Assembly (NCBI RefSeq): GCF_932294415.1
Contig: NC_065536.1
Location: 56,173,854-56,237,853 of the forward strand
Source: Quercus robur
Taxonomy: Eukaryota > Streptophyta > Magnoliopsida > Fagales > Fagaceae
Direction of reading: 5' to 3'
DNA: 64,000 nucleotides
The position numbers and the translations under genes were made by a program. The notes under the pieces were generated by a model. It did no database searches and had not been told where the DNA came from. It saw nothing but the letters and a program-made list of their open reading frames with translations. Shown here one piece after another: positions 12,674 through 33,574 of the stretch. How positions within the stretch are numbered: the first letter of the stretch is position 1; every line of letters begins with the position of its first letter.

Positions 12674-13687
12674 TGATAGGCCAAGAATGTATTGACCCCT
12701 TGTGATAAATTAATTGATTAATTAGTCAAGTTTATTAATTAATCAAATTAACGTGCAGTGTACATGGCAGCACAAACAAATCACCAATTAAACTAAGTAT
12801 ACAGTGGAAAATAAATTGACATGGTGATTTGTTTACGAATGAAGAAAACCAATATGGCAAAAACTCCACCAGGTGATTTTAAGGTCACTACTTCCGAAAA
12901 TCCATTATTATCAAAACAAGTGGTTACAAGTAAAGAAATTCTAATACCTTATACCAACCTACATTTGAATCCTTACCCCAATACCCAATTGGACTTGTTC
13001 TGTAGTGACAATCTTTCCTTGTAATGCATGGTTCCCAGTACGTGACTAACCAATTGCATGGATCCCAGTATGCGACTTCAATCACCAACTAAAGAAGGTT
13101 GTTGGCTGCAAAGTTCTTCAGTTCATCACATGATGAAGATCGAGAAGCTCCTTGGTTACAAAACCCTACGGTGCATAAATACAGTAGCTTCTTCACAAGA
13201 AAGATGAACTAGGACAAATTCTGTCTCCAATCACAATTTTGTTTAAACAAATTTTGCTCAACACTTGTGCAACTTGTGTCACCTTTAACGGCCCTTAAAA
13301 TAATTCTTTTATAGTCTAGGGTTGTGAAAAAAGAAAACCCAAACATACAATCATGGATTGAATGAAAAACAGTCTTGAAAAACTAAACTTCATAAACCTC
13401 GACAAATACCCTATCTGTCGAGTTGCTATTGAGCCACGGGCTAGAACAGCTCTTCAAGGCTCGATAGATGCTAGCTGTCGAGTTTTAATGAACAACACTT
13501 TTCTCACTTGAATCTTGGACAGACTTGCATGACTTTAACACTTGAACTTGAAGCAAGGTTTCTTTAAGTATTAAACACATCTTAGATCTACCCAAATACA
13601 AGTAAAGTGCGTTTTGTCAAAGGATTAGCCAATTACAAAAAATAGTGACATATGTTTCTAACAAATGAATCACATATGTCTTAAAAA
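12674..13687 (-). repeat. 3' LTR of the 12.7-20.3 kb element
   Basis: Pairs with 19283-20290. In plus orientation it begins TGATAGGCC and ends TGTCTTAAAA where the partner ends TGTCTTAACA, so the TG/CA terminus at the inner edge is mutated. The central part carries the TCGA-type motifs (about 13398-13490). Confidence 0.85.
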
Positions 13688-14247
13688 TCTCCCATTTTGA
13701 CAATCCGTGACAAAACCACAAATAACAAATAAGATATAAGAGAAGTCATAAATCACTCAACTCATATTTACTTGTTGAGTACAATAAAATCTATCCTAAC
13801 ATAAACTCTTGAAAAACTTTGCAAGAAGAGAGTCTATGGAAAGAAAGACTTTGACAACCTGTATTTCTGAAACACTTTAAACAAAACTCATCACGACATC
13901 TTAGTATGAAACGGAAATAATAGTTTGCATACATAATATAAGAAACATGTGTATAAAGAAAGAAAAGAAACAACACATGGAGAGATAGGTGAAAAGAAAA
14001 ACATACATCACTATATAAAGAAAAATAAGAACAATGTATATCAATAACGGTCGCAAGACCCATGTACAAGAATAATGTATCTCAAATAGAAAGAAAAGAA
14101 AAGAAATACATCAAGTCCTCACTACATCCCTCAATGTGCACTCTCCCCCTAACAAAATCTCCTCTACTAACCCTCCCCCTAACTATGACTACTCTCATAA
14201 CCAAAACTACTTCCCCTTTTTGTCACGAGTGACAAAGGGTAAAAGTG

Positions 14248-15440
14248 TCAAGTAGACATCTCGTCAGCACTGAAAGAGCTAGCATCTTCATCATCCTCAT
14301 TATCAGAAGCAATAGCATCATCATCATCCTCAGCATCATCAGCACTGCCAAAGCTATCACGCTCATCTGTAGAGGCCACAAGAGTGGAAGGCACGGTATA
14401 ATCGCCCGTCTCAGCCTGGCGTCGAGCAATATGGCCAACACGGGTGTTCACCTAACACAACTTATCACTGAAAGTGTCGAGGCGAGTATCCATGAGTTGA
14501 AGCTACGTCATGATGTCATCGAGTGTCACATTGCTTGTAGAAGAGGATGGAGTAGATGTGGATGAAGCAAAATGAGTGGGAGGAGCTGCTCTATCGGAAC
14601 GCCTAGAATGAAACTACGCCTAGCTGTGTTTAACGGTACCAACATCTATAGCACCCATGACAAGGAAAGGCTCGGAAGAAGGAAAAAGAACATCAGAATG
14701 GCATAAAAGCCTCGTGATAGCTGAAGGGAAGATGAGCTTATCACGGGTCACTGAATCCCTATATACATCTATAAAAGAAAGAATGAAATGAGAGGGAAAG
14801 TCTATACTAAGGTCCTCTAAAAGAGAAAGCAAAAACCGAGCACGGGGCTTTGTAATAGAGTTATAGTGAGAGAGAGGATGAAGTACAAAAGTCATGACCA
14901 TGTTAAGAAAATGAGGGCCTTTAGCAAAGCCCATACAAGAAGTAAACAGACGATTACCCCAATTAGATGGACGCTCACAGAAAGCAAAAATGAGCTCGTC
15001 TTTAGACACTGTCTTAGGACGATCACAACCAGGGTAGTCAAGATGCTCTACCCTAGGGACATAGAGCACATCGGAGACAATCTTCGGTGTGACAACAATG
15101 TGCGTAACTCGAATGTGAGTAATGAAATAAGGTATTGAAGAACCAAATCCATGCATGTTGGAGTAGAACTTCTAGATCAGCATGGATGGACATGTGACCA
15201 GGACGTCACATAGTAACTCCCAACCCCGACTGTAAATGACAGTGGGTAGGTCAGTGTCGGAGAAATCCGACAAGACGACGTGGAGTTCCGAATGAATGCC
15301 TCATCGAGAAAGTTCTCAAAGAAGTTCGATCTAGCATTCTCATCACGTAACCGGACAGAAAAAGGGGTAGTGTCAACAGAAGAAGATGCCCCGAAATGAA
15401 GAGGGTTTCGGGACGGAGTAGATTTACATTTAGGTGACAT
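14248..15440 (-). pseudogene. ORF2 of the 12.7-20.3 kb element (putative plant transposon protein domain), broken
   Basis: A frame opens at 15440 (MSPKCKST...), shifts near 15300, and continues through SRGWELLCDVLVTCPSMLI, a stop, then KFYSN and on to about 14620. An acidic, serine-rich tail (DDAEDDDDAIASDNEDDEDA) ends at 14248. The core lines up with ORF2 of the neighbouring element: EGRGWDKLLSDFPLVCEPLI then REFYSN there, with I-V-x-D-V-L following in both. That supports homology despite low identity. A stop and frameshifts make it a pseudogene. Function is unknown; the domain is found in many plant retroelement-linked proteins. Confidence 0.65.
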
Positions 15441-15989
15441 AAAAGCAGACTAACGTAAATGAAGAGAAGGAGAGAGAGAGAAGACAATCAGAAAAGTCCC
15501 AAGCAGTTCAAATATATCAAGATATATTGAAAATAAAGAATGCATGCATGAGAATGCATGAACATGTGACATGCAATAGAAAAAGCATCATGGGCTTAGC
15601 CTAATCCAAACCTACCGGCACACAAGCAAATGACAGATATAGCACACATCTAAATGCATGAAAATACAGTTATAATGCTCATGAGATGCAATGCATGAAG
15701 TTTTTAAGATCAGATCTTCAAAAACCATCCCAAAAATTTTGCAAAAACCTCTTTGATTTTGAAAAATCCCAAATTTTTCAAAAATCCTAAAAACTTAGGT
15801 TAAAAAGCATGAAATGCATGAAAATGAGGGATTTAGACACTTACCAAGTGAAGAGTAACTTAATTAAGGTCGAAAATCTCTTGGGAATGAAGTTTAGAGA
15901 AAGAGAAATGTGTTTGGAAGGTGAAACGGTTGAGATCAATCAAGAGAGATCGTGGAAAGTGAGATCAGAATCGCGAGCGCTCCTTATAT

Positions 15990-16250
15990 AGGACCTCAGT
16001 AATTCTCGACAGATCGAGAGGTGTTGAAGATCTATCGAGCTTTAAAGGGTTCGATAGAAGCTACTATCGAGCATATGTCCAAGGCAAGGTGAAGCTCGAT
16101 GGATTGAGGTTGTTGTCGAGGATCTATCGAGGGGACATAAACTTTCTCAATCAACCCACCTAGCTATCAAGAGGTGTCAAGATTGCGATAAAAAACAACT
16201 GAAGAGCTCAACATATAAGCCAGGTATCGAGAGGTGTCGAGGTTGCTTTA
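15990..16250 (-). promoter_or_regulatory. Cluster of TCGA-core motifs upstream of ORF2
   Basis: Short motifs such as TCGACAGATCGAG, ATCTATCGAG, TTCGATAGAAG, CTATCGAG, TCGAGGATC and TATCGAGAGGTGTCGAG are packed into about 250 bp. The same vocabulary occurs in the LTRs of this element (13398-13490, 20005-20095). In transcription orientation the cluster lies about 0.55-0.8 kb before the ORF2 start. Confidence 0.6.
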
Positions 16251-17289
16251 AAATAGTTTTTCAAGAAGAGAAAAACACAGATATGAATGTAGTCAAACAT
16301 GCAACTCAATCAAGGATCCAAACAACATTTTGACCTCTCAAAAACATCTCTCAACAAAAATGTTAAGCATTTTGATCCCAAAACACACACACACTAAACT
16401 AGTCTAACCAATTTTATATTTCAAAAACAAGTTAATACAGTTTAGTGAGTATACATTAATACATGTATTTCTTGTGATGGCCAAATCACATTGTACCTAT
16501 CCATGTATCAAGAGTAGTAAAGAATATTGCGTGTTGTGTGTGAAAAACATTGCAAGATTGCATAAGTGTATACATGATATGACGATTTGAGATATGAGAA
16601 AATCACTTTAACTCACACATAATCATAATTGTTTGATGGGGATTATCACCTTTGAGGTACATCCTATAACTCCCACATCTCCTAGAATACACGCTTACAA
16701 TCATATTTAAAGTATTTTATTCTTTTTGCTTTTTATTTTCTTTGCATATTTTTCTTTTTGAGTATATCATGCATGGGCATATAAGAAAGAGAAAAGAAAT
16801 ACCCAATTATGTTAAGCATTTGACATTCTACTTTTGCTATGTCGAAGCATACAAATGTCATTTCATGATTGGCAGGCAACAGTGGTGAGATGATTATTTA
16901 TGCATTTTTCTTAGGATTTTCTAGTCATTCTCGTCAAAAAGAGTGATATAAGTGTTAAGTATAAGAGATCACTTAACCTTACTCATCACAAACACGAGCC
17001 ACAAAACTCACTTGCTTAGTTGTGCATAGAGATGCTCATCTAAGTTACAAAAGATACAAAATTTAGAAAACTTTGTTTCAATGGCCATCCAAGATACACA
17101 AGTACCAATGTACACAAAACACACACTATTTTTGTATTTTTCAATTTTTTTTTTATATGAAAGACAAAATAAACCAAAACTGAAAAGAAAACAAATAAAA
17201 ACAAATTAAACAAAGTAAAGCATAAAACTAGACTGACTCAAAACAATAAAGCAAAACACACAAGTAATGCAAACAAAAACAATAAGAGG

Positions 17290-19211
17290 AGAGAGAAAAA
17301 GTGATAGAATCACTCGAAGCCCTTTTTCCTTCCACACCTTGGAAGAACCTTTCCGTTTGGCGAACTCTTGAACCAGCGATGAGGGGGAAGAATTGAAACT
17401 GTTCAAGTTCGAAAGGAACATGAGGGTTTTGAGAAGATCTCCAAGGGGAGCAAAAGAGAATGGAAATTAATTTTGGTTTACCAATGCAATCATGTTGTTG
17501 CTCTGTTGAGTGGCTAACCACTTATAGCAATTAGGTCGAGTATGATCGGCTGCTTCATAGTGATGACAGAGATGCTGCTTCTTTTGTTTAGGCTTTTGAG
17601 AGTTAGCCTTCTTAGCCCTAAGGTTTTTAACTTCTTTCTTTTCCTACTTAGGAGGTGCTCCTAAGATTGATTTACCCTTGTCTATGTTCTCACTAGCTAA
17701 GTCATCTTTAACAACATTGTTATCAGTTTCAATATTATTAGCAAGAGGAAAAAAAAAAGTAGTACTAGTAGAAGCAATGCTAGAGGAAGAAAAATCATAC
17801 CCTAAACCGGTTCGATCAGAAGCAGATTTCTGAAGATTGAGCATCCCATCGAGCTTAGCACTTGAAATCCTTTCCAACTGAGCTCTGACTTGGAATAATT
17901 CTGCCTCAAGGTTCTTGGTCTTTTCAGCCAAGAAATTGTTCTCAAATCTCAATGCTTCAATAGTCTGATTTGCTTCATCAACCTTTGTGGAAAGCTCTTC
18001 TTGTTTCAACTTAATGTCACTAAGCTTCTTGGTGGTCAACCTATACATCTTCTCATGCTTCTCTAAGACCTTGTATAACTTTGAATAAGCTATGTGGATG
18101 TCATCTTGTTCATCCATCTTCTCAAACTTGGATTCCACCAATTTCTCTTCTTCATCCACATCTTCAATAATCCCCTTAGTAGGATTGACAGTGGCAGTGA
18201 AGGCATTTAGAATTCCGTCATCCTCATTGTCAAAATCATCCTCAGGTTTGGTGTCAATCAAAGTAGCAGCAAGTGCCTTGCTCTTCCCAATGGTCTTGAG
18301 ATATGTGGGGCACTCTTGTTTTATGTGACCGAAGCCTTGACACCTGAAGTACTTTGGTCCTGAGGGAACAGTGTACTGACTGCCATTCCTAGCACCTTCT
18401 TCCTTTTGTCTTGACTTTTGAACTGAGAGGAACTAGATTGCTTACGGTCCTTGTCGAAGCCCTTCCCATTGGCATTCTTCATGAACTTTTTAAATTGACT
18501 TGTAATATAGGACTTCATCTTAGAATCTTCATCGTTTGAAAACTCATCAGTATCACTGCTTTTGGCCTTAAATGCCATACTCTTGCCCTTACCCGACTTG
18601 CCAATTCTTGATAAACCTAACTCATAGGTTTGCAGATTACCAACCAGCTCTGACAAAGGAATCTTGTCTATATCCTTTGATTGCTCGATCGCGGTGATCT
18701 TGGCATGGAATCTCTCGGGTATAGATCTGAGCACCTTTCTCACAATCTTGGGTTCAGAAATGGTTTCCCCAAGATTATAAATTGAGTTCACTATGTCCTT
18801 GTGCTTGGCATAGAACTCATCGAACGACCCATCCTCCTCCATCTTGATCTCTTCGAAGCTTGTAGTGAGCCTCTAAAGCTTCGAATCATTGACAGCCTTA
18901 GTTCCTTCATAGGTTGTCTAGAAGATGGTCCATGCTTCCTTTGCAGTTTTAGTGGAGGATATCTTCTTGAATTCCTCATTAGTGACTACACTGAACAAAG
19001 CATTCAATGCCTTGCTATTGAAGTTTGTCGCCTTGATCTTAGCATCATCCCAATCAGCTCGTGCTTCCTTTGACTTGGTCCAACTTATCTCCATAGCTTG
19101 CCACACTTTCTCATCTAGAGACTACAAGAAAGCTCTTATGCGTACTTTCCAGTATGCATAGTTAGTACCATCAAATAAAGGAGGTATAAAGAAAGACTGT
19201 CCTCTATCCAT
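17290..19211 (-). pseudogene. Copia-type gag of the 12.7-20.3 kb element, decayed
   Basis: Begins MDRGQSFFIPPLFDGTNYAY (ATG at 19211), the N-terminal Copia Gag motif (DUF4219/UBN2 type). It continues through KALNALFSVV, FDEFYAKHKDIVNSIYNLGE and KIVRKVLRSIPERFHAKITA. A zinc-knuckle region (KYFRCQGFGHIKQECPTYL, read across a frameshift) comes next, then a coiled-coil-like stretch and a second CCHC near 17540. Several in-frame TAG codons stand where relatives have CAG or equivalent, consistent with C-to-T decay. The frame runs out near 17290 at the point where a pol gene would normally follow. Confidence 0.8.
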
Positions 19212-19263
19212 GACAAACAGGGGTTAATGGATCGTACAGTAAAGATTAACCCTAATTAAAGTG

Positions 19264-19281
19264 TGCCCATTTTAATACCAC
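19264..19281 (-). other. Decayed primer-binding site
   Basis: Just inside the 5' LTR, the minus strand reads TGGTATTAAAATGGGCAC. It lines up with TGGTATCAGAGCGGGTAC of the neighbouring element. Most differences are C-to-T or G-to-A, the signature of methylation-driven decay of an initiator-Met-type primer site. Confidence 0.6.
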
Positions 19282-19282
19282 T

Positions 19283-20290
19283 TAATAGGCCAAGAATGTA
19301 TTGACCCATTGTGATAAATTAATTGATTAATTAGCCAATTTTATTAATTAATCAAATTAACATGCAATGTACATGGCAGCACAAACAAATCACCAATTAA
19401 AATAAGTATGCAGTAGAAAATAAATTGACACGGTGATTTGTTTACAAATGAGGAAAACCAACATGGCAAAAACCTCACCGGGTGATTTTAAGGTCACCAC
19501 TCCCGAAAATCCACTATTATCAAAACAAGCGGTTACAAGTAAAGGAATCCTAATACCTTATACCAACCTATAGTTGAACCCTTACCCCAATACTCAATTG
19601 GACTTATTCTGTAGTGACAATCTCTCCTTGTAATGCACGGCTCCCAATACATGACTAACTAATTGCGTGGATCCCAGTACGCAACTTCAATCACCAACTA
19701 AAGAAGGTTGTTGGTTGCAAAGTTCTTCAGTTCATCACACGATGAAGATCGAAAAATTCCTTGGTTACAAAACCCTACGGTGCACAAACACAGTAGCTTC
19801 TTCACAAGAAAGATGAACTAAGGCAAATTTTGTCTCCAGTCATAATTTTGCTTGAACAAACTTTGCTCAACACTTGTGCAACTTGTGTCACCTTTGACGG
19901 CCCTTAAAATAATCCTTTTATATGTCCAAGGTTGTGAAAAAAGAAAGCACAAACATACAATCACAGATTGAATGAAAAACAATCTTGAAAAACTGAACTT
20001 CATAAACCTCGACAGATACCCTATTTGTCGAGCTGTTATCGACCCACGGGTTGGAACAACTCTTCAAGGTTCGATAGATGCTAGTTGTTGAGCTTTATTG
20101 CGTAACACTTTTCTCACTTGAATCTTGGACGGACTTGTGTGGCTTTAACACTTGAACTTGAAACAAGATTTCTTTAAGTATTAAACACATCCTAGATCTA
20201 TCCAAATACAAGTAAAGTTGTCAATGGATTAGCCAATTACATAAAATAGTGACATATGTTCCTAACAAGTGAATCACATATGTCTTAACA
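19283..20290 (-). repeat. 5' LTR of the 12.7-20.3 kb element
   Basis: Read on the minus strand it runs from TGTTAAGACATATG to GGCCTATTA. It is followed outside by the TSD ATAAA (20291-20295). Contains the TCGA-core motifs near 20005-20095. Confidence 0.87.
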
Positions 20291-20337
20291 ATAAAGTTAC
20301 AACTTATACGCAAATAAAATAAAATAAATTTTACCAA

Positions 20338-20455
20338 GAGTCTTGTAGTTTAGTGACTTGCTCTCTTCTATGAGGAGAAACATGGTTCATTTCCAATACC
20401 AAACTATGGTTCAAATCCCCTTCCTCATTGTTGTAATTATCAAAGTATTTATAAT
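20338..20455 (+). mobile_element. Old tRNA-derived SINE-like sequence, copy 1
   Basis: CTTGTAGTTTAGTGACTTGC resembles an A box region, and GGTTCAAATCCCC a B box. The same unit lies at about 44068-44175 at the paralogous place, so it was present before the segment was duplicated. No clear TSD. Confidence 0.55.
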
Positions 20456-20837
20456 AACAAAAAAATGCTCTTAGCTATGTCTGTGCATTACTTGTTCATT
20501 CCCAAAACCAAAATATATAAAACAGGTCATACTTAATACATAAAACTCTCACTTTTGTAGGGTTTATGAGAGGTAATAAGAACTCTTACCTCAATTTTTA
20601 TTTTGTTTTATTGAGAGGCTGATTCCTGAACCCATGACTTGCAATTAGAAAAGAATATCTAGAACTCAGTATACTAGTATAGGCAAAAGAAGAACACATC
20701 ATATAACCAAACTAATGGTATAGAACTAAAAAAAATAGGCAATAAACTTTAAACAACAAATTATAACTTTTGAGAGTAGAACTTGTGAAACTGTATTATA
20801 TGAGAACGTGCATGCATCAGATATATGCAATATTTTA

Positions 20838-21188
20838 GGGGAAAATATCATTTTCATCCCTAAACTTTCATAAAAGTTTGTTTTTCGTCCCAAAACTTTC
20901 AATAGTTTATTTTTGTCCATAAACTTTACAAAACATTCTACTTTTCGTCATTACATCTATGTCTGTTAGTTTATGTCCTATGTGGCTTAATGAAGTGTTG
21001 ACATGGAATATGACTTGTACCGTAATATTTTATTTAAAAAATTTTGGACGTGTGGCACAAATTTATTGGCACACATGGAAAAAATAATATGACAAAATTA
21101 CCTAAGAGGCAGAACCTAACCTTTTTCCAAAGCCACGAAAACCCAACACCTAAATTCCTATAGCGGCAGCCTCAACCAGCGAGCCCAA
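20838..21188. repeat. Left terminal inverted repeat of the MULE-like element
   Basis: Matches the reverse complement of 30063-30415 with moderate divergence and small indels. Tip GGGGAAAATATC versus GTAAAATATC on the other side. Confidence 0.8.
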
Positions 21189-21355
21189 TTGATGACTCTA
21201 AGGCAGTGACCCGACCATGAAATCCCCACCCTAAACCAGTGAACAATGACCCCAAATCCTTAGCCTTAGGTGATTAACTCTCCATGGTGCGAAGCATGTT
21301 AAATGGAAATGGAAGTGGTCTTCATGTTGTTTGGATCTGTCAATCTATCAATTAA

Positions 21356-21509
21356 TGGCCTGTTTGGATGGAGGGGAGAAGGAGGGGGAGTGAAGGGGAG
21401 TAAAGTAGAGTTGGCTAAAAATAAGCTAATTTTGTGCTAAATCTACTATACTCTACTCTACTCTACTCTACTCTACTCCTCATCTCTCTCCCTCAATCCA
21501 AACAGACCA
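21356..21509. mobile_element. Tourist-like MITE, 154 bp
   Basis: Terminal inverted repeats TGGCCTGTTTGGAT and ATCCAAACAGACCA with TAA on both sides (21353-21355, 21510-21512). The arms are purine-rich (GGGGAG...) and pyrimidine-rich ((CTCTA)n). TSD and termini fit the PIF/Harbinger (Tourist) type. Confidence 0.78.
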
Positions 21510-21922
21510 TAAGTCTAGGAAAATACTAAAATTAGTTCAAATCTAGAGTAGTCGACTAGTCGTAGTATAAGTTCTCCAATTCTTTTGACTTACTACAGTA
21601 GGCCCTTGAAGTGTGCAAAGACAATCTAATGCTTTGTTGGTGCTTGTTGGCTAGCAAAAACAAGATTTGACAAAATCACCTCATACCAACATACAAGGAA
21701 CTAGAGTGATGGCATCTTAGTTATTGAGCAATTGAGTTTTCTGGAAAAAAAAAAAAAAAAAATCATGTAAAGTCAAAGATGAATTTCCTAAAGCTTTACG
21801 TAAACTTTTTCACAATGAAAAAAAGATTCAGATCAGCCATGCAAAAATAAATGTCGCTGATCGTCAGTTTGGGGAGGGGATTTCACAGTCAGGGTCATCG
21901 CCTTGGAGTCGCGAATTGGGTT

Positions 21923-23032
21923 TATAAGGTTGAATTTATTCAACCATCTAATTGGCTTTATTCCGTGCCAAATTTGCTTGTAATTCAGCATTTAGTAACC
22001 CTGTATTTAGGTGGGATTGTTGTAAGGGTAGTGAGTGAGATAGTGTGAAGATTGCTCAAGAGTGTGCAAGAAAACAGAGTGTCGCGGCTGGAACTCGCGG
22101 CTGGACTCGCGGCTTCAACCCGCCAGAATCTGCACACGTGCCAAGCATGCTGGAAGATGAACAGTCATGCTAGCTGGAGCACTACAGGACAAAACAGGAC
22201 AACTGGCCATACGGTTAACTCGCGACTGGAACTCGCGACTTAGTCAAGCCGCGAGGTCAAGCCGCGAGCCACCCCTGTTTTGGAAAAACCTGACGTTTCG
22301 CATTCCTCTTCACTCCAGTATAAATACCCTTTTAACCCACGATTGAAAGAGAGCTTCCAGAGAGAATTTTGAGAGAGAAACCCTAAAGAAAAACCAGATT
22401 GTTTCACCCACAATCTCTACCTTAGAGTCTCATCAAATTCCCTCACTCTCTTCCTCTCCATTGTCAAATCCTTGAGAGGCCTTTATACCAAACCTGGTTC
22501 TCACCATTATCATCCCTGTGAGACAGTCGTTTGGAGTTCTGGGAAGCAGTTAGGAAGGAGCCAATCTTTATTGGTGGATGCTACGGTGTAGTAGCGGAAT
22601 CCGGAAAGCTAGAAAAGAAAAAGGTTCGGCGCAACCTCGTTGGAGCAAGAAGCTTGGAGGGCTTAGGTGCATTGGGTAGATTAGGCTTGGAGGGTCTATT
22701 GCTGTCCTTGTATCCCAACTGTATTTTCTAGTGGATTGATTACCGCTTGGAGGGCGGCGGAGAGGTTTTTCGCCGAGGTCTTCGGTTTCCTCTTCGATAA
22801 CATATCTGTTGTTATCGCTGTGTTTGCATCTTCCTTTCTCTCTATCTCTGCCTTTACATTATCTGCTGTGGTTTATTTTGTTGTGGCTTAGATAGTTGTT
22901 TAATCAATACCATGTTATAGTATATGTTAAGTTTCCGCACACTATTGTTTAACATATTGCGTGTGTTGATTAAATTGGTTTTTGGGGGTCTAAACGTTCA
23001 AAAGTGTTTTTGTACACGTTTTTGAACTTTCA
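21923..23032 (+). repeat. 5' LTR, 1110 bp
   Basis: Runs from TATAAGGTTG (TG expected; second base mutated) to TTGAACTTTCA. Carries seven TCGCG/CCGCG-type motifs at 22081-22270 and the probable TATA box AGTATAAATACCC near 22317-22330, followed by a leader rich in CTCTC. One 12-bp motif unit present here is missing from the 3' LTR. Confidence 0.92.
22081..22270 (+). promoter_or_regulatory. TCGCG motif cluster in the LTR, upstream of TATA
   Basis: GTCGCGGCTG, ACTCGCGGCT (twice), ACTCGCGACT (twice) and AAGCCGCGAG (twice) lie within 190 bp, the last ones about 60 bp before the TATA-like sequence. The repeated phrase is conserved in the 3' LTR (29132-29300) and reappears upstream of ORF2. Such placement fits an enhancer or a site for an element-encoded or host factor; binding is inferred. 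Confidence 0.6.
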
Positions 23033-23034
23033 AT

Positions 23035-23048
23035 TGGTATCAGAGCGG
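23035..23048 (+). other. Primer-binding site
   Basis: TGGTATCAGAGCGG lies two bases after the LTR end. TGGTATCAGAGC is the standard Copia primer site complementary to the 3' end of initiator methionine tRNA. Confidence 0.92.
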
Positions 23049-23106
23049 GTACACAGCTGTTTGGTTTCATTACCATTGTGTGATCCTTGACTCCCTTTCT
23101 TTTGAG

Positions 23107-25056
23107 ATGGATAGGTCTCAATCCCTTAATGCACCTCCATATTTTGATGGAAGTAATTATGCATTTTGGAAGGTTCGTATGAGAGCCTTTTTATGCTCTA
23201 TTGATGAATCCGTGTGGGATGCTGTTGAGATTGGTTGGGCCAAACCTGAGGCAGCCAAATCCACATGGGATAAGGCAGCACTTGCTGCATCTAATGCTAA
23301 CAGTAAAGCACTAAATGCTATTTTCTGTGGTGTGTCTCCAGATGAATTTCACAGGATTTCTCACATTACTATTGCCAAAGATGCATGGGAGATTCTGGAA
23401 ACAACTTATGAAGGCACGAAGAAGGTGAAAGATACCAAGTTACAAATGCTGACCACTCGGTTTGAGGAGCTCAAGATGAGTGAGGATGAGTCTTTCGACT
23501 CGTTCTATGGGAAGCTAAATGAAGTGGTTGTCAGCAAGTTTAACTTGGGGGAGAAGATGGAGGACTCTAAGATTGTAAGGAAGATCCTCCGATCACTGCC
23601 GGAAAGCTTCCGTGCCAAAGTGACAGCCATTGAAGAGAGCAAGGATCTTGACGACATCAAGGTACAGGAGCTGGTTGGATCTCTACAGACCTATGAGATG
23701 TCGCTGCCAAATCAACGGAAGGGTAAATCCATTGCTCTAAAGACCGTTAATGAGAAGGTGGAAGATCAAGGCTCGTCAGGAGAAGATATGGTTGACAAGG
23801 ATGTAGCCTATCTTGTTAAAAATTTCAAGAAGTTTTTGAAATTCAAAAACAATGGAAAATTTGATGATAAGAGAAATTTCCAAAATTCTGGAAGGGAGAA
23901 GAGGGATTTCAAGAGGAAAGATGGAAAAGAATCCCAATCCACACAAGGTGTTACTTGTTTTGAATGCAACGGCCATGGACACTTCAAGAGGGAATGTCCT
24001 AATTATTTGAAATCGAAAGGCAAGGTGTATGCCACGACCTTGAGTGATTCAGACTCGTCCGACTCAGAATCTGAAGAAAGCTGTGATGGAGAAGGGAACT
24101 ACTCAGCTTTCATGACTATTGCTCATGTTGAGTCTTCGGATGAATTGAATTTGCTTGTTCAAGACCTTGGAGAACATAGTGAGGATGACTCACTAGGAAT
24201 TGCTGAAGAATCTGAAGCTGAAGAAGAAGAAAGCACAGCAACTCTTCAAGAAAATTACAACTCACTTTTGGAGAAATCAGGTGAATACACAAGGGTAGCC
24301 AAGGCTGCTGTAAGAAAGATGAAGAAGGCTGAGGAGGACTACAAAAGTCTCCTAATCCGGTATAGGGAGGCCAAATGCGAGATTGAAACTCTTAATGGTG
24401 AGCTGTCCGAAGCCTACACTAAAGTGAGATTCCTTGAGAATGAGGTTGTTCAAGCAAATGCAAAAATAGAGAGGGTCACCACCAAGAAGCTTGATGATGT
24501 TATATCATCTCAAAAGAGCTTCTCAGACAAATCCGGACTGGGATATACCGGAGGAAGTAGCTCAACTGGAAATGTCACTAAAGAAGTGAAGTTTGTGAAG
24601 TCCAAAGATCCAGTTGTAGCTGACTCTACGAGTGTGAACCTCGAGGTGGAGAAAAAGAAGAATGTGGTGGACCAACGGATGCTGAATCATCGGAATCAGT
24701 CTATGGGCAGGTCTGAGTCTCGTGCCAAGTCACGTCCTCGACCACAAAAAGGTCCTAGAGGAATGTATGTGTGCCATTATTGCGGACTCCAAGGGCACAC
24801 TCGACCGAATTGCCAAAAGCTGAGAGCAAAGAACAGTGCTACTCCTCAAAGGTCAGGAGGACTAAGAATTGATAGGAGAACTTGGGCAGGGGATCAACCT
24901 AGAGAGCAAAATGGAGATCCCGGAATGGTGAACGTGATGAAGATGATGGTGCATTCACCAACTGCTTGGAAAGCTTCTCACGAAGGTTTGAAAGCCCTAA
25001 CTCCCGTACCCAATCCTTTAAGGAAATCACCCCAAACGCAAGTGACGTGTGGGTGA
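23107..25056 (+). CDS. gag: Copia-type Gag with two zinc knuckles
   Basis: A 649-residue protein from the ATG at 23107 (MDRSQSLNAPPYFDGSNYAF). It forms the retroelement particle and binds RNA. The DUF4219-type N-terminus is followed by a UBN2-type capsid region (ILETTYEGTKKVKDTKLQML; FDSFYGKLNEVVVSKFNLGE; KIVRKILRSLPESFRAKVTA). A CCHC knuckle CFECNGHGHFKRECP comes near residue 280, then an acidic segment, a heptad-like coiled-coil stretch, and a second knuckle CHYCGLQGHTRPNC near residue 560. The frame is intact and closes at TGA 25056, where Copia elements usually run on into protease and integrase. Here nothing Pol-like follows in any frame. An earlier in-frame non-ATG start is possible but less likely than this ATG near the LTR. 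Confidence 0.92.
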   Translation: MDRSQSLNAPPYFDGSNYAFWKVRMRAFLCSIDESVWDAVEIGWAKPEAAKSTWDKAALAASNANSKALNAIFCGVSPDEFHRISHITIAKDAWEILETTYEGTKKVKDTKLQMLTTRFEELKMSEDESFDSFYGKLNEVVVSKFNLGEKMEDSKIVRKILRSLPESFRAKVTAIEESKDLDDIKVQELVGSLQTYEMSLPNQRKGKSIALKTVNEKVEDQGSSGEDMVDKDVAYLVKNFKKFLKFKNNGKFDDKRNFQNSGREKRDFKRKDGKESQSTQGVTCFECNGHGHFKRECPNYLKSKGKVYATTLSDSDSSDSESEESCDGEGNYSAFMTIAHVESSDELNLLVQDLGEHSEDDSLGIAEESEAEEEESTATLQENYNSLLEKSGEYTRVAKAAVRKMKKAEEDYKSLLIRYREAKCEIETLNGELSEAYTKVRFLENEVVQANAKIERVTTKKLDDVISSQKSFSDKSGLGYTGGSSSTGNVTKEVKFVKSKDPVVADSTSVNLEVEKKKNVVDQRMLNHRNQSMGRSESRAKSRPRPQKGPRGMYVCHYCGLQGHTRPNCQKLRAKNSATPQRSGGLRIDRRTWAGDQPREQNGDPGMVNVMKMMVHSPTAWKASHEGLKALTPVPNPLRKSPQTQVTCG

Positions 25057-26094
25057 AAAGGGGTACTCATGCATAAGCATTACAACATGTCCATGCATTA
25101 ATACTTCCTATGCTTTGTGACTATGTTTGTTTGGTATGCTTGTTGTTTTTGATTTTGGTTGTTTGTTTGTGAATATCTCTTAATTGTGTTTTATCAATCT
25201 TTTTGTTTCTTGAGTCAAAAATCCAAAAAATTACATAAAAATTTGAAAATCAAAAAGCTTGATTGACTTTGTTGAGTTTTGTCTTAAAACTCGTTTTGCC
25301 GTGTACCTTTGTGCTAATGGCTTTGTGCATTCTCGAGCATTGCTTGTTTTCATGCACTCATATCACTATGGGAAAAATCTTGAAATCTATGTGATTGTTG
25401 TAAATAGATCTTCAAGCTTGTCATGAATGATTAGTGAATGGTTATGTCGATCTTGAAACATGCATAGATTTGTGTCTATATCTCTTCCCATTTTTTTATT
25501 TTTTTGCTAAAAAGAGCTCACTAAATGTAAATCTCCAAATGAAAAGAGATATTGAGCTGCAAAAGCCTGTCGCACATTCTAGTATTTGACTAGGAAAAAG
25601 GGTAAGCGACCTTATATCAAAAGTGAAATTTCTTTCAAAAAGGCCAAAGGCCTATTCTTCAAAGAAAAGTGTTGTCTATCCCTCTCACAATGAGAGATGA
25701 TTGCCTCAAAAGATCAAATGTTATGGCTGAAAGTGGAGTCAAATGAAAGGCTTCAAGTTATGTTATCAAGTTGTGTGGGAAGTCATATATTCATATTTCT
25801 ATAATTGAGATTGGTCACATGATCTAGTGCTAATTGTGTATGCCTTGGTTGAATTGATCATTGAAGCTTCACATTAAACAAAGGACTATCTCATTGTTGT
25901 TATCCACACACAACACACAAGTTTATGTTCGATAAATGCCATATTCATTTGTGTGATTGTACTTGATAAAATGTGTTTTCACATGCTCAATCTTTGTTAA
26001 TTCAAGCACAAAAAGATTTTTGAGTGTTTTAGGTGTTTTTGGAAAGTGTTTTGCTGAAAAATCTGAAAATTTCAAAAATACAGTTTTGCCCTGT
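25057..26094 (+). other. Non-coding spacer between gag and ORF2
   Basis: No Pol motif and no long frame. After the stop, the frame WVKRGTHA resembles the gag-pol junction of Copia elements, suggesting pol was deleted here. The stretch is T-rich, with many short frames only. Confidence 0.6.
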
Positions 26095-26350
26095 TTTGGC
26101 GGCTCAGTCGCGGGTGTGTCAAGTCGCGAGCCTCAGTCGCATCTTCGCTGGTCAGTTTTGGCGACTTGTTCGCGAGTGGAAGGTCCAGTCGCGAGATTCA
26201 CTCAGAGATTTTCGCGGCTCAGCTCGCGACTCACTCGCGGGTAGACCTTCCAGTCGCGAAAAACACTTAGAAAAATTTTTCAAAATTTTCCTCTTGTGTG
26301 CTTTGGCGGCTTGAGCTGGCGACTGTGTGGCGACTTGAACCAGTCGCGAA
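26095..26350 (+). promoter_or_regulatory. TCGCG motif cluster upstream of ORF2
   Basis: About ten TCGCG cores (AGTCGCGGG, AAGTCGCGAG, TTCGCGAG, CAGTCGCGAGA, TTTCGCGGCT, GCTCGCGACT, ACTCGCGGG, AGTCGCGAAAA twice, ATCGCGTG) and several GGCGACTTG variants lie within 255 bp, all C-G rich in an AT-rich context. The LTR promoter region has the same words. The cluster ends about 170 bp before the predicted splice donor of the ORF2 leader, so it may be the core of a second promoter. Confidence 0.6.
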
Positions 26351-26520
26351 AATCGCGTGTTTTGCAGAAACAGGAGCAGTTTTTAAACTTTTTCAGTTTT
26401 TCCCTCGAATTTTTGTGACTGTTCATCTTCTCTCTAAACACTCTTCCTCCCAAACACTCCGTGCTCCCTTTTCCAATCTCTTGTGTTGCACTCTTACAGC
26501 CTAAAATCGTCAAGATACAG

Positions 26521-27105
26521 GTATGGGTTTTCTGTTTTTCACTCTTTTCTACTTGATTCTGTGCTTTTACCCTTGATTTTTCGCATTTGATTGTGTTTTT
26601 GAAATGGGTTTGTGGGTCGGTCTCTGCTCTTTGTTCTTGCTTTGCGTGTGGATGTTGTTGATATAGGTTGTGTTAATGATAGTCTTATTCCTATTGCTTT
26701 TGTGCTTAGCTAAGTATTCCTTTCATTTCAATCTGAACTTTGAGCTGTTGATGTTACTCTTGGTTCTGTTTGAGGTTGTGAGTTTTCCTTTGCTAGATTT
26801 GCATGTCTTAGATTGTTAATCTGTGGGAAGATTCTGTTAGGCTCAATATATTGTGTGTATGTCATATCATTTTCCATAATCTGCCTCAATGTCATTTATT
26901 TGCCTTCAGGATAGCTTCACCATGTTGTTCATGTGTTTCCTATCCTAGGCTTGGTTTATCCATATGTTTGAACTAAATTGCTTGCTGTTTAAGTGTTTGA
27001 AATTCACTTGTTTGACTGATATCTCTCTCTGTTAACTACATGGTACTGACTGGTTATGCACCTATATTGTTATATGTTGTTGTGGCCTTTTCTGATTGTT
27101 CACAG
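26521..27105 (+). other. Probable 5'-UTR intron of ORF2
   Basis: A pyrimidine-rich leader (CTCTCTAAACACTCTTCCTCC) leads to AGATACAG|GTATGGGTT at 26520/26521. A T-rich stretch of 585 bp with typical plant-intron composition ends TTGTTCACAG at 27105, immediately before ATGGCTCC. An unspliced transcript would carry an extra in-frame upstream ATG at 27040. Confidence 0.55.
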
Positions 27106-28182
27106 ATGGCTCCTTCACCCCAGAAGAAGAAATCTACTGCTAAAAGGGCTAACAAAAGACTTAAGATGGATCCTAGATTGTTTAGGTCAGTTCATCATTT
27201 TGAGAGATACAAGGATAACTTCTTGAATGCAGGAATCATTCAAGAGAGATTTGTGGATTTGGAAGATTTAAGGCAAACTTTTATTCCCAGTTGTTTTGAA
27301 GGAAGAGGATGGGACAAACTTTTGAGTGATTTCCCTTTGGTGTGTGAACCCCTGATTAGAGAATTTTATTCAAATGCTGTGATAAAGGAGAATGAGTTAA
27401 ATTGCTGGGTTAGAGGGAAAGAATTCATTTTGGATGCACATGTCATAGATGATGTACTAGGGCTTGAGGGTTTGGATGATGAGGAGTTTATCAATTTCAA
27501 GGATAGGAGTGTCTCTATTGAAACAGTTCAACAGAGGATAGGTGGGCAGAGAGAAGGGAAGTGTTTGAATACCACTGCCTTTCCAGTGGACATGAGGGTT
27601 CTAACCATAATCATGATGTTTAACCTTTATCCTATTAAGAAGTTGACCACAATCAATTGTGCTAGAGCAATTTTTCTGATGGATCTCAAAGAGAAGAACT
27701 TCATAGATATAAGTTCCCACATCTTTGACATCATTGTGGATGAGACAAGAACAACATCTAGACCAAAACTGATCTTTCCCAGTCTCCTAATGAGGATATT
27801 TCGAAGGAAGGGTGTTCCAATTCCTCAAGACATCAGTCACATGTCCACACCCTCTGCAATCAACAAACTTACCTACAAAAGGATCAGTGTTAGGCTTCCA
27901 GGAGAAGAAGATGAAGGTGATGAAGGAGAGGAAGTCCCAATGGAGACTGATGCAGAGGCAGCAGGGCATGCATCCACCTCAACACCAAGGAGGAGTGGCA
28001 AGAGGTCCAGAGCTTCAACTTCTGCAGATGCACCTCCAGATGCTTTCCAGATCATTCTGGAAAGGCTTGATGGGATCAGGGCAGTCCAGACTGAGCATTC
28101 TGACAGGATGAGAGCCATGCAAGACCAGATTGATGTCTTGGCTGCTACACTTAACAGCTTCACAACTCAGCATGACCAGTGA
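27106..28182 (+). CDS. ORF2: putative plant transposon protein domain, intact
   Basis: A 358-residue protein beginning MAPSPQKKKSTAKRANKRLK, a basic N-terminus that could act as a nuclear localisation signal. The core has the pattern of the 'putative plant transposon protein' family: GRGWDKLL...PLVCEPLIREFYSNA...NCWVRGKEFILD...IDDVLGLEGL, then a helical region ending near residue 275. An acidic stretch EEDEGDEGEEV, a basic KRSRAS segment and a C-terminal helix with coiled-coil-like periodicity (ILERLDGIRAVQTEHSDRMR) follow. The catalytic role of this family, if any, is unknown to me. It replaces Pol in position and has its own leader and intron. The start was chosen at the ATG after the predicted acceptor; an ATG 66 bp upstream is in frame. 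Confidence 0.8.
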   Translation: MAPSPQKKKSTAKRANKRLKMDPRLFRSVHHFERYKDNFLNAGIIQERFVDLEDLRQTFIPSCFEGRGWDKLLSDFPLVCEPLIREFYSNAVIKENELNCWVRGKEFILDAHVIDDVLGLEGLDDEEFINFKDRSVSIETVQQRIGGQREGKCLNTTAFPVDMRVLTIIMMFNLYPIKKLTTINCARAIFLMDLKEKNFIDISSHIFDIIVDETRTTSRPKLIFPSLLMRIFRRKGVPIPQDISHMSTPSAINKLTYKRISVRLPGEEDEGDEGEEVPMETDAEAAGHASTSTPRRSGKRSRASTSADAPPDAFQIILERLDGIRAVQTEHSDRMRAMQDQIDVLAATLNSFTTQHDQ

Positions 28183-28962
28183 CCCTTTGGCCATTCCATG
28201 TCAAAAAGGGGGAGAAAGTTCATTGATAATTGAAGCAGAAAAGCAGCTGTTGAGGGGGAGTAATTAGTGTTTTTATGGTTTTTTATGGTTTTAATACACT
28301 GGGTTTTGGTGTATAACTGTTTCTAACTCTTTTCATATACTCTTGGTTTATTCTTTAAATATATTTGGATGATGTTATTCAGGTATTGGTTAGTTTGTAC
28401 CCATATGCTTTTGTAAGCTTTGAGGGTTTATGTTCTATGCATAGTTTGTAGGCCTTGTGGTATGTACCATGCTTAAGTGCAGCCTTTATGCTATGTTGAA
28501 ATCAGTACTTTAATCTAAATGTTCTGCATTGTGATTGTTGTACTGTCACTCTTGTGCCCTTGTAGGATTGTTCCTAGATGCATATGCCTTGTGTGCTATG
28601 CATTGGTTGAGTGTTGTACATACAAGTGTCTTGCCTTGTGCTTGTTAACTTGTATGTCCTTGTGTTCATTCCAAGTGTGAATGAACACTGTGATCACTAC
28701 CTTGTGGTGTTCACTTGGTTGATCAAGCCATGGTTTGTTTATTAACTCCATCTTTGCTTGATCACATATTGCCTGTTTCATATGCATTTATAATTTTCTG
28801 CTTACAATGATCATGGTGTATTGTTGTGTTTCAGGAGTTTATGTTCATATGATTCAAGTGCTTCACAACTTCTAGAATTAGGTGTGAGTGAGTTTTGATC
28901 AACTGTTCCCAACTCACATGTTAAGTCTAGAGTCTGTTTTAGGGTTTTGTCACGGAATAGCC
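28183..28962 (+). other. 3' untranslated interior of the element
   Basis: Contains AAAAAGGGGGAGAAAG and TTGAGGGGGAGT just after ORF2, polypurine stretches typical of the 3' interior of SIRE-like Copia elements. The rest is T-rich with no open frame of note. Confidence 0.55.
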
Positions 28963-28974
28963 AAAGGAGGAGAT
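28963..28974 (+). other. Polypurine tract
   Basis: AAAGGAGGAGAT directly abuts the TGTAAGG start of the 3' LTR, the position of the plus-strand primer. Confidence 0.8.
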
Positions 28975-30062
28975 TGTAAGGTTGAATTTATTCAACCATC
29001 TAATTGGCTTTATTCCGTGCCAAATTTGCTTGTAATTCAGCATTTAGTAACCCTGTATTTAGGTGGGATTGTTGTAAGGGTAGTGAGTGAGATAGTGTGA
29101 AGATTGCTCAAGAGTGTGCAAGAAAACAGAGTGTCGTGGCTGGAACTCGCGGCTTCAACCCGCCAGAATCTGCACACGTGCCAAGCATGCTGGAAGATGA
29201 ACAGTCATGCTAGCTGGAGCACTACAGGACAACTGGCCATACGGTTAACTCGCGACTGGAACTCGCGACTTAGTCAAGCCGCGAGGTCAAGCCGCGAGCC
29301 ACCCCTGTTTTGGAAAAACCTGACGTTTCGCATTCCTCTTCACTCCAGTATAAATACCCTTTTAACCCACGATTGAAAGAGAGCTTCCAGAGAGAATTTT
29401 GAGAGAGAAACCCTAAAGAAAAACCAGATTGTTTCACCCACAATCTCTACCTTAGAGTCTCATCAAATTCCCTCACTCTCTTCCTCTCCATTGTCAAATC
29501 CTTGAGAGGCCTTTATACCAAACCTGGTTCTCACCATTATCATCCCTGTGAGACAGTCGTTTGGAGTTCTGGGAAGCAGTTAGGAAGGAGCCAATCTTTA
29601 TTGGTGGATGCTACGGTGTAGTAGCGGAATCCGGAAAGCTAGAAAAGAAAAAGGTTCAGCGCAACCTCGTTGGAGCAAGAAGCTTGGAGGGCTTAGGTGC
29701 ATTGGGTAGATTAGGCTTGGAGGGTCTATTGCTGTCCTTGTATCCCAACTGTATTTTCTAGTGGATTGATTACTGCTTGGAGGGCGGCGGTGAGGTTTTT
29801 CGCCGAGGTCTTCGGTTTCCTCTTCGATAACATATCTGGTGTTATCGCTGTGTTTGCATCTTCCTTCCTCTCTATCTCTGCCTTTACATTATCTGCTGTG
29901 GTTTATTTTGTTGTGGCTTAGATAGTTGTTTAATCAATACCATGTTATAGCATATGTTAAGTTTCCGCACACTATTGTTTAACATATTGCGTGTGTTGAT
30001 TAAATTGGTTTTTGGGGGTCTAAACGTTCAAAAGTGTTTTTGTACACGTTTTTGAACTTTCA
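28975..30062 (+). repeat. 3' LTR, 1088 bp
   Basis: TGTAAGGTTG...GAACTTTCA with intact TG/CA ends, followed by TSD GGGTT. It lacks 12 bp (one TCGCGG unit) and 10 bp (ACAGGACAAA region) compared with the 5' LTR, and those two gaps account for the whole length difference of 22 bp. Confidence 0.92.
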
Positions 30063-30415
30063 GGGTTCACTGGTTGAGAACCTTAAGGTTGCCGCTATTG
30101 GGTTTGTGTGTTGGGATTGCTTAGTTGTGGAATAAGGTTAGGTTTGAGAGGGGTAATTTCCTTAGATTTTTTTTTCCATGTGTGCCAATAAATTTGTGCC
30201 ACATGTCCAATTTTTTAAAATTAAAATAGTTTAGTCCAAGTCATATTCCAAGTCAACACTTCGTTAGGTCACGTAGGATATAAACTAATAGACATAGATG
30301 GAAGGATGAAAAGTATAATGTTTTGTAAAGTTCAAGGACGAAAAACAAACTTTTGAAAGTTTAGGGACTAAAAATGAACTTTTGTGAAAGTTTAGGGATG
30401 AAAATGATATTTTAC
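30063..30415. repeat. Right terminal inverted repeat of the MULE-like element
   Basis: Inverted match of 20838-21188. Its inner edge coincides with the target site of the LTR element. Confidence 0.78.
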
Positions 30416-30527: not shown

Positions 30528-31913
30528 CTAATATAATATCCTTAAACCTAAAAATTGACTAAAACACTCCCTGAAACCTAGAAAATGACCAAAATACCCC
30601 CCCCCCAAAACCTAAACCTAAAAATTACAAAAATACACCCTAAACCTAAAAAATTACCAAAATTCCCCCTAAACTTAAAAAGTGACCGAAATAACCTTAA
30701 AACCTAAAAAATGACTAAAATACCCTCTGAAACCTAAAAACGACCAAAATACCCCCAAAACCTATGAAATGACCAAAATATCCCCAAAATTTAAAAAAAA
30801 AGACCAAAATACCCCTAAAACCTAAAAAAATTTCCAAAATGCACCTTAAGCCCCAAAAATTACCAAAATACCCCCTAAACCTAAAATATGACCGAAATAC
30901 CTCCGAAACCTAAAAAAAAATGATCGACAAAAACCCTTGAAACCTAAATTATGACGAAAATACCCCTAAACATGTAAGATGTCCAAAATAGAGGTTTGGG
31001 GTATTTTGGATGTTTCGAGGATATTTTCAACAAATTAAAGGTTCTAAGAGTATTTTAGTCATTTTATAGGTTTCAAGGGAATTTCGGTAATTTTTTAGGT
31101 TTCAAGGGAATTTCAGTAATTTTTAAGGTTTCGGGGTTATTTTGATCATTTTTTAGATTCTAAGGGTATTTCAATCATTTTTTTGTTTATGGGGGAATTT
31201 CTGTCATCCTTTAGGTTTTAGGGGCATTTCAATAATTTTTATATTTTTTGGTTATTTTGGTAAATTTCTAGGTTTCAGAAGTATTTTGGTAATTTTTAGG
31301 TTTTGGGGTATTTTAGTAATTTTTAAGGTTTCGGGGGTATTTGGTCATTTTTGGGTTTTGGGGGTATTTTGGTCATTTTTAGGTTTTGAGGCTATTTTGG
31401 TCATTTTTTGGGTTTTGGGGGTATTTTGGTCATTTTTTTGGTTTCAGGGGCATTTTGGTCATTTTTTGGGTTTCGGGGGGGGGGGGGGGGGGTTTTGGTC
31501 ATCTTTTGGGTTTTGGGGGTATTTTAGTCATTTTTAGGTTTCGGGGGTATTTTGGTCATTTTTGGTTTTTGGGGTGTTTTGGTAATTTTTAGGTTTGGGG
31601 GGTATTTTGGTCATTTTCTAGAAATTTAGATTTTATGTTGGTAATCTATAGCCGCATTTAAAAAACGTGGCTATAGGTCCTCCTTTAAAAGGAAAAAAAA
31701 ATAATTTATTTGGCTAAAAAATGCAGCTATAGGTTAGCTATAGCCACGTTTTTTAAACACAGCTATCGATCCTCCTTTAAAATAAAATAAAAAAAATTTA
31801 TTTGGCTGGACCTATAGCCACATTTATGAACGCGGCTATAAACTTAACCTATAACTGCGTTTCTATAAATGTGGCTAAAAAAAACGCGACTATAGCCTGT
31901 GTTTATTGTAGTG
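30528..31913. mobile_element. 1.39-kb insertion with a CACTA-like right end and palindromic minisatellite
   Basis: The paralogous unit near 44670-44680 reads ATTACATTAGTACAAAAC uninterrupted. Here 1386 bp are inserted with TAG on both sides (30525-30527, 31914-31916). The right end is ...TGTTTATTGTAGTG, the reverse complement of a CACTACAATAAACA-type terminus, and the 3-bp TSD also fits CACTA. The left end does not show CACTA. The last 270 bp (31640-31913) hold GCGGCTATAG/CTATAGCCGCG-type subterminal repeats. Confidence 0.6.
30535..31620. repeat. Inverted pair of 25-30 bp minisatellite arrays
   Basis: From 30535 to about 30990 the unit AAACCTAAAAAATGACCAAA plus ATACCCCC repeats about 16 times. 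From about 30990 to 31620 its reverse complement (GGGGGTATTTTGGTCATTTT plus TAGGTTTC) repeats about 22 times. The two halves can pair as one long imperfect hairpin. A G16-like run lies near 31476-31491. Open frames here are artefacts of the repeat. Confidence 0.85.
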
Positions 31914-32577: not shown

Positions 32578-33574
32578 TGATAGGCCAAGAATATATTGAC
32601 CCCTTGTGATGAATTAAACAATTAATTAGCCAAATTAATTAATTAATTCAATTTGCATGCAATAAGCGCGTTAGCACAAACAACTCACCAAATATTTAAA
32701 TGCAGTGGAAATTAAATTGACACGGTAATTTGTTTACGAATGAGGAAAACCTACACAGCAAAAACCCCACTAGATGATTTTAAGGTCACCACTCCCGAGA
32801 ATTTACTATTATCACAACAAGCGGTTACATGTAAAGGAATTTCAATACCTTATACCAATTTACAGTTGAACCCTTACCCCAATACCCAATTGGACTTGTT
32901 CTGTAGTGACAATCTCTCCTTTTAATGCATGACTCCCAGTACGTGACTAACCAATTCTATGCGTGGATTCCAGTACGCGGTTTACTCACCAACTTGATAA
33001 AGATATTGGCTGCAAAGTTCTTCAGTTCATCACACGATGAAGATCACAAAACTCCTTGGTTACAAAACCCTACGGTATACAAACACAGCAGCTTCTTGAA
33101 TAGGAAGATGAACTGGGGCATATGTCTTCGGTTCACAATATGCTTGTGAAAAACTTTTGCATAGAGTTGCATTAGCTGTGACAGCCCTTAAAATAATCCT
33201 TATATATGTTTAGGGTTGTGAGAAAACAAAGCCCAAACATCTATTCACGGATTGGATTGAAATCAGCTTTTGAAAAACTGATTTTCATAAACCTTGATAG
33301 ATAGCTTATCTGTCTAGCTAGCTATTGAGAATCGAGCTTCAGCAGCCTTTTAAACCTTGATAGATACTAGTTATCGAGTTTTAAAATCCAGCACTTCACT
33401 TGTTTCTTGGACATACTTGCATGATTTTAACACTTGAACTTGAAACCTTGTTCCTTGAAGTATTAAACACATCCTTAATCTACCCAATTACAAAAAAAAG
33501 TGTGTTTTTTTCAAAAGATTAGCCAATTCTATATTGACATATGTTCCTAACATTGAATCACATATGTCCTAACA
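32578..33574 (-). mobile_element. Solo LTR of the 12.7-20.3 kb element family
   Basis: Plus-strand ends TGATAGGCC and TGTCCTAACA match the LTRs at 12674 and 19283. Flanks GTGGT (32573-32577) and ATGGT (33575-33579) are a TSD with one mismatch. The right end was later copied by a local tandem duplication (see 33501-33910). Confidence 0.82.

What the first reader, a model, noticed from the sequence alone, without database searches (positions are those of the whole stretch)
12674..30062. Two unrelated-LTR retrotransposons share a Gag + ORF2 plan with no Pol
The elements 12674-20290 (minus) and 21923-30062 (plus) have different LTR sequences, yet both carry a Copia-type Gag with two zinc knuckles, no protease/integrase/RT/RNase H, and then a gene of the 'putative plant transposon protein' family. 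Because both deleted Pol and kept ORF2, ORF2 is unlikely to be a passenger. They look like a non-autonomous lineage that supplies Gag and an accessory protein and borrows Pol. I do not know a description of this arrangement as a defined family, but cannot search.
Basis: partly seen in the sequence, partly recalled or inferred. Interest (0 to 1): 0.85.

Follow-up and report, generated by a model that had tools for sequence, protein, structure and literature searches.

The report
A retrotransposon split into two halves
A jumping gene in this plant genome appears to be split into two separate, abundant elements, one making the particle protein and the other the copying enzymes, and both also carry a gene that looks like a transposon-made factor for escaping the plant's silencing.

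Summary
The observation largely holds: both elements are real LTR insertions (5-bp duplications) with a Copia Gag, no Copia Pol found, and a Transposase_32 ORF2. In element A, Gag is broken and two zinc knuckles could not be shown.

Element B looks like one half of a two-part Copia element. Its partner has the same LTRs (about 97%), leader, spacer and 3' region, but a Gag-less Pol where B has Gag. Genome-wide there are 1,337 Gag starts, 464 Pol starts and 469 RT cores; on contig C1, 0 of 21 exact RT cores had an exact Gag start within 12 kb upstream. Each half has its own ORF2 (about 34% identical). No partner was found for A.

The parts
21923..30062 (+). Element B: Gag half of the split Copia element
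   Evidence: LTR pair, TSD GGGTT/GGGTT, K2P 0.0074
21923..23032 (+). B 5' LTR
   Evidence: 96.9-97.8% identical to the LTRs of Pol element L039
23035..23046 (+). Primer binding site TGGTATCAGAGC (initiator-Met tRNA type, recalled)
   Evidence: sequence; same PBS and leader in L039
23107..25056 (+). Gag ORF (stop-to-stop frame 23026-25053). Of 66 listed genome copies 61 have 682/683-aa frames; this copy has 676 aa and its last ~35 residues differ
25184..26611 (+). Spacer 1 (shared part), 91% identical to the spacer between Pol and ORF2 in L039
26122..26349 (+). Six AGYCGCGA motifs in spacer 1, upstream of ORF2
22082..22267 (+). Seven AGYCGCGA motifs in the 5' LTR, several in 12-13-bp direct and inverted arrangement
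29147..29297 (+). Five AGYCGCGA motifs in the 3' LTR
27106..28182 (+). ORF2 (Transposase_32; 'ORF2G') from the likely Met (an earlier ATG lies at 27040): globular domain plus C-terminal long helix; VANC21-like by structure comparison
28963..28974 (+). Polypurine tract (by eye)
   Evidence: sequence
28975..30062 (+). B 3' LTR
12674..20290 (-). Element A: older Gag + ORF2 element, no partner found
   Evidence: LTR K2P 0.097, TSD ATAAA/ATAAA
17647..18872 (-). A Gag, main pieces, broken into overlapping frames (similarity to B Gag runs to about 19280)
14623..15449 (-). A ORF2 in two frames; Transposase_32 in the piece 14623-15171

Best explanation
Element B belongs to a two-component (bipartite) Copia retrotransposon. 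One component carries Gag + ORF2G, the other carries protease-integrase-RT-RNase H + ORF2P. Both have the same LTR, PBS/leader, a ~1.4-kb spacer and the 3' region, so both RNAs can enter the same particle (inferred). Gag is supplied in trans by one and Pol by the other (inferred). Template switching between co-packaged RNAs would keep the shared parts alike while the coding modules stay apart (inferred; one Gag+ORF2P pair was seen among 18 Gag-ORF2 pairs). ORF2 is a VANC-like protein that binds short CG-containing motifs clustered in its own family's LTR and spacer, and so counteracts silencing of that family (inferred). Element A has the same Gag + ORF2 plan with other LTRs; its Pol source is unknown and its motif signal is not above background. 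Subjective split: structural two-part organisation 0.9, mutual dependence for mobility 0.7, ORF2 as VANC-like DNA-binding factor 0.55.
Confidence: 0.65

Rival explanations
1. B is an ordinary non-autonomous TR-GAG parasite, and the Gag-less Pol elements are likewise deletion derivatives; both are mobilised by a complete autonomous Gag-Pol element that is rare or diverged.
For: Such parasitic systems are known. RT cores and Pol starts were matched only for near-identical copies, and 34 of 95 listed RT cores lacked an exact Pol start upstream. The genome holds many other Copia RT frames, some of 1301-1607 aa.
Against: RT cores (469) and Gag-less Pol starts (464) are nearly equal in number. On C1, 0 of 21 exact RT cores had an exact Gag start within 12 kb upstream. 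In the Gag list 61 of 66 frames are 682/683 aa and the longest is 720; in the Pol list the longest is 1215 aa, so no fused frame was seen.
Confidence: 0.25
2. ORF2 is an envelope-like or movement-type protein, as proposed for other 3' sense additional ORFs of plant LTR elements.
For: [quoted passage not shown] env-like readings of such ORFs are in print (PMC7264820 and PMC11728184, passages). The frames of L008, L019, L027, L033 and L036 hold hydrophobic stretches (1.8-2.5) before the likely Met, and B's first ATG at 27040 would add a hydrophobic N-terminus.
Against: After the likely Met, ORF2G and ORF2P have no such stretch (maximum 19-residue hydropathy 1.2-1.3); NLS-like basic stretches in several; same domain beside a DNA-transposon transposase; no viral fold match at E<=0.001.
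Confidence: 0.1
3. The clustered CG motifs are ordinary LTR enhancers read by host transcription factors (a CGCG-box type site is recalled), and ORF2 does something else, e.g. particle import or integration targeting.
For: Repeated enhancer boxes in LTRs are well known (recalled); motifs lie in the LTRs and upstream of ORF2, where a promoter could sit.
Against: Motif identity changes with the family and follows the ORF2 clades tested, including the MULE, whose noncoding DNA carries another motif; the arrangement resembles published VANC target arrays (PMC5735166, passages).
Confidence: 0.3
4. ORF2 is a captured passenger without function for the elements.
For: ORF2 pair L029-L033 dN/dS 0.91.
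Against: The other ten ORF2 pairs tested lie at 0.17-0.40; frames without stops dominate among the top-scoring copies; present in both halves, in three Copia LTR families and beside a MULE transposase.
Confidence: 0.04

Closest known systems
Wheat Fatima subfamilies (PMC6097303; passages read)
   Same: Sister subfamilies split RT/INT from gag/protease; the authors suggest supply in trans.
   Different: Here protease goes with Pol, the superfamily is Copia, both halves carry a Transposase_32 ORF, and the split is reciprocal within otherwise shared LTR, leader, spacer and 3' DNA.
TR-GAG elements (named in PMC10794571, passage; Chaparro 2015 not read)
   Same: LTR pair with Gag and no Pol, as in A, B and the third family.
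   Different: B has a second gene and a Gag-less Pol counterpart with the same LTR.
Soybean SNRE and its partner SARE (Du 2010, not held; SNRE mentioned in PMC3701649, passages; the SARE name and details recalled)
   Same: Non-autonomous LTR family thought to depend on enzymes of other elements.
   Different: There the partner is recalled as autonomous; here the Pol partners seen lack Gag.
VANC anti-silencing proteins of Arabidopsis VANDAL MULEs (PMC5735166, PMC10398659; passages)
   Same: Best structural match of ORF2 (VANC21-DNA); the domain lies beside a MULE transposase in this genome; short motifs clustered in noncoding element DNA.
   Different: No DUF1985 sequence match; carried also by Copia retrotransposons; motifs contain CG; binding and demethylation not shown.
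Athila 3' additional ORF of sunflower (PMC11728184; passages)
   Same: Transposase_32 domain in a sense 3' ORF of an LTR element; NLS reported.
   Different: Ty3/gypsy (Athila) element; in the passages seen not linked to VANC, to motif arrays or to a split element. A later sunflower paper (PMC12844716, passages) recalls VANC and leaves open whether Tork and Athila ORFs modulate their epigenetic landscape.

Membership tests
TR-GAG (Gag-only LTR element) | LTR pair with target-site duplication | tested here: met
TR-GAG (Gag-only LTR element) | Gag domain present, Pol absent | tested here: met
   Copia Pol tested by tblastn, gypsy Pol not
Parasite of a complete autonomous element (SNRE/SARE type) | Autonomous Gag-Pol partner with matching LTR | tested here: inconclusive
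   Only Gag-less Pol partners found; whole-LTR search did not complete
Division-of-labour pair (Fatima type) | Complementary genes in sister subfamilies sharing LTRs | tested here: met
Division-of-labour pair (Fatima type) | Supply of proteins in trans | not testable with these tools
   needs an experiment
VANC anti-silencing protein | DUF1985 domain | tested here: not met
   Not listed for any of 20 ORF2 proteins at E<=10 (HMMER filters drop most weak matches)
VANC anti-silencing protein | VANC21 fold | tested here: inconclusive
VANC anti-silencing protein | Encoded by a MULE beside its transposase | tested here: inconclusive
   The Transposase_32 domain lies downstream of a MULE transposase in 49 of 49 listed pairs; element ends were not mapped, and the Copia ORF2 itself is not in a MULE
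VANC anti-silencing protein | Short target motifs clustered in noncoding DNA of the same element | tested here: inconclusive
   Motif clusters shown; that ORF2 binds them is not shown
[quoted passage not shown]
   no methylation data

The most novel reading that the evidence does not exclude
A multipartite retrotransposon: two LTR elements that cannot move alone have split Gag and Pol between them, are kept together by shared cis-DNA, and each brings its own self-targeting VANC-type anti-silencing factor, a gene family exchanged between retrotransposons and DNA transposons.
Probability: 0.4. Interest if true: 0.93.

Novelty: new variant of a known kind. Interest (0 to 1): 0.8.

Why it matters
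It gives a concrete, high-copy case of a retrotransposon split like a multipartite virus, which makes trans-complementation, Gag:Pol supply and co-packaging testable by sequence. It also proposes a function for Transposase_32, a widespread plant transposon domain named only as 'putative', and predicts that retrotransposons as well as MULEs carry family-specific anti-silencing factors with their own target motifs.

Tried and rejected
Whole-LTR DNA search of the own genome for partners of A and B: not completed. Structure searches: Foldseek on PDB and on viral models gave nothing at E<=0.001; profile search of PDB sequences gave 0 hits; DUF1985 in the own genome gave 2 weak places. The second fold (MULE-type Transposase_32) was still unfinished. 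Papers (all passages or listings, no whole text): 'putative plant transposon protein' + retrotransposon gave 0; Transposase_32 + retrotransposon gave 1; 'bipartite' with gag/pol/nonautonomous terms: 150 papers, 20 listed, judged by listing; 'anti-silencing' + VANC + LTR terms: 23 papers, 15 listed, of which I saw passages of PMC11728184, PMC12844716, PMC10398659 and PMC11963269 only, and none of these passages states this claim. Sasaki 2022 on VANC in eudicots is not held. I do not claim absence beyond these. The strong repeat in the window tile starting at 48 kb is an 81-bp satellite, not a dispersed motif. L030's B motifs lie in B-family-like sequence, including an LTR nested in an A-type element.
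Full report
What is there. A (12674-20290, minus) and B (21923-30062, plus) are genuine LTR insertions with 5-bp target-site duplications ATAAA and GGGTT (read by eye from the printed flanks). LTR divergence is K2P 0.097 for A and 0.0074 for B. B has an initiator-Met-type PBS, an open Gag frame with Retrotran_gag_2 and a CCHC knuckle, a 2-kb spacer, an open Transposase_32 ORF2 and a polypurine tract. A has the same plan with broken frames. No Copia RT or integrase was found in the window at tblastn E 1e-4; Ty3/gypsy Pol was not searched separately.

ORF2 is common. The own genome (785.7 Mb) gave 6,384 first-look candidates for PF20167; the 150 scored were all over the cut-off. I fetched 20 of these 150, every fourth from rank 1 to 77. 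Four (L019, L027, L029, L033) are LTR elements with Gag + ORF2 and no Copia Pol found, a third LTR family. One (L035) is an LTR element with Pol + ORF2. One (L030) is an A-type element with a nested B-family LTR. Thirteen belong to the MULE group below (by motif, and L036 also by the transposase in its locus). L017 shows none of these.

The partner of B. L035 has B's LTR end and PBS. Four more loci were then chosen by their 368-aa ORF2 frame. All five are LTR - Pol (PR-INT-RT) - spacer - ORF2 - LTR without Gag by tblastn (PBS; Pfam domains for L035 only). L039 matches B at 96.9-97.8% over LTR and leader, 91% over the spacer and 96% over the 3' region plus LTR, while the Gag/Pol and ORF2 stretches do not align. 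Its LTR K2P is 0.0082, close to B's. In another frame near the end of B's Gag region lies a VWVKRGTHA stretch before a stop, where I think the 682/683-aa copies end; I read it (recalled) as the old Gag-protease junction. The Pol frame starts shortly before the protease motif WYLDSGCSRHMTG. In the third family the L027 Gag frame ends in a similar-looking way.

Two classes genome-wide. Patterns with at most one mismatch gave 1,337 Gag starts, 464 Pol starts and 469 RT cores, with zero in the reversed controls. Each call lists 100 places. On contig C1 the exact lists hold 80 Gag starts and 21 RT cores; no RT core has a Gag start within 12 kb upstream on the same strand. Of 95 exact RT cores listed on C1-C3, 61 have an exact Pol start 2.3-2.8 kb upstream; one-mismatch starts are not listed, so the other 34 are unresolved. 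8 of 8 listed ORF2G on C1 follow a Gag start, 23 of 27 listed ORF2P on C1-C3 follow an RT core, 0 of 35 ORF2G follow an RT core, and 0 of 8 ORF2P on C1 follow a Gag start. In the top-scoring lists (66 Gag, 75 Pol, 113 ORF2G, 112 ORF2P) same-strand pairs within 12 kb were Gag-ORF2G 17, Gag-ORF2P 1, Pol-ORF2P 12, Pol-ORF2G 0, Gag-Pol 0, Fisher p 1.5e-7. 61 of 66 listed Gag frames are 682/683 aa. The commonest Pol frame is 1174 aa (40 of 75 by my count of the list) and the longest is 1215.

Selection. Nei-Gojobori dN/dS is 0.09-0.11 for Pol (two pairs), 0.17-0.36 for ORF2P (five pairs), 0.30 for third-family Gag (one pair), 0.30 for one MULE-type ORF2-domain pair, and 0.37-0.40 in four of five third-family ORF2 pairs; the fifth (L029-L033) is 0.91.

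Motifs. B carries 18 AGYCGCGA sites, all in LTRs and spacer, none in Gag or ORF2; L039 carries 19, likewise. The third family carries CGATCGA at 10-19 matches per 10-kb locus (overlapping matches counted; two in L027 lie outside the element), those inside the elements all in LTRs and spacer. The 13 MULE loci carry AACTCGAT at 6-24 per locus; in the 10 checked none lies in the ORF2-domain gene stretch. The sets hardly mix: L019 has two AACTCGAT, and L035, L038 and L040 one CGATCGA each. L007 and L008, older relatives by LTR, have five and one AGYCGCGA. Word-enrichment scores for noncoding parts were log10 P -16.0 (B), -15.6 (L039), -11.7 (L027), -15.5 (L033), -7.2 (A). Controls: eight window tiles, seven at -4.5 to -8.1 and one at -36.8 (a satellite), and eight other Copia RT loci at -3.5 to -5.7. 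A is therefore not above background.

Reading. I take B as the Gag half of a two-part Copia retrotransposon with a Gag-less Pol half, and ORF2 as a VANC-like factor acting on each family's own motifs. The anatomy is shown; trans-supply, co-packaging, DNA binding and anti-silencing are inferred. Division of labour between sister subfamilies was already suggested for wheat Fatima (PMC6097303, passages), TR-GAG elements are known, Transposase_32 was already reported in an Athila 3' ORF (PMC11728184, passages), and whether ORFs of LTR elements act like VANC has been raised in print (PMC12844716, passages), so I file it as a new variant of a known kind. The plant is unnamed and I did not identify it.

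Noticed in passing
window 43025-43671 (+), LTR-like stretches 33006-33575 and 41899-42499: Third, decayed Copia gag relic (about 55% to B Gag) with four GCTCGACA sites at 42215-42288 in an LTR-like stretch (71% to 33006-33575) just upstream.
   Followed up: partly
window 53324-54320: 81-bp tandem satellite containing CCGAGGAC, about 13 copies.
   Followed up: partly
window 20842-21102 and 30152-30413: Inverted repeat arms (81-90% complementary) flanking element B: B may have inserted into a larger inverted-repeat element.
   Followed up: no
window 30539-31645: Degenerate ~29-bp tandem arrays in both orientations just right of B.
   Followed up: no
window 21907: One AGYCGCGA site lies in the flank just before B's left end.
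   Followed up: no
G000:C40 around 43293699-43298835 (-): A Gag followed by ORF2P, the only recombinant-like pair among the top lists.
   Followed up: no
L002, L007, L008: Parts 77-81% identical to B's LTR or spacer, with a third ORF2 lineage in the same clade (L002 not in the tree); their upstream gene was not seen.
   Followed up: partly
window 38508-39287 (+): 260-aa open frame that looks like a short-chain dehydrogenase (by eye).
   Followed up: no
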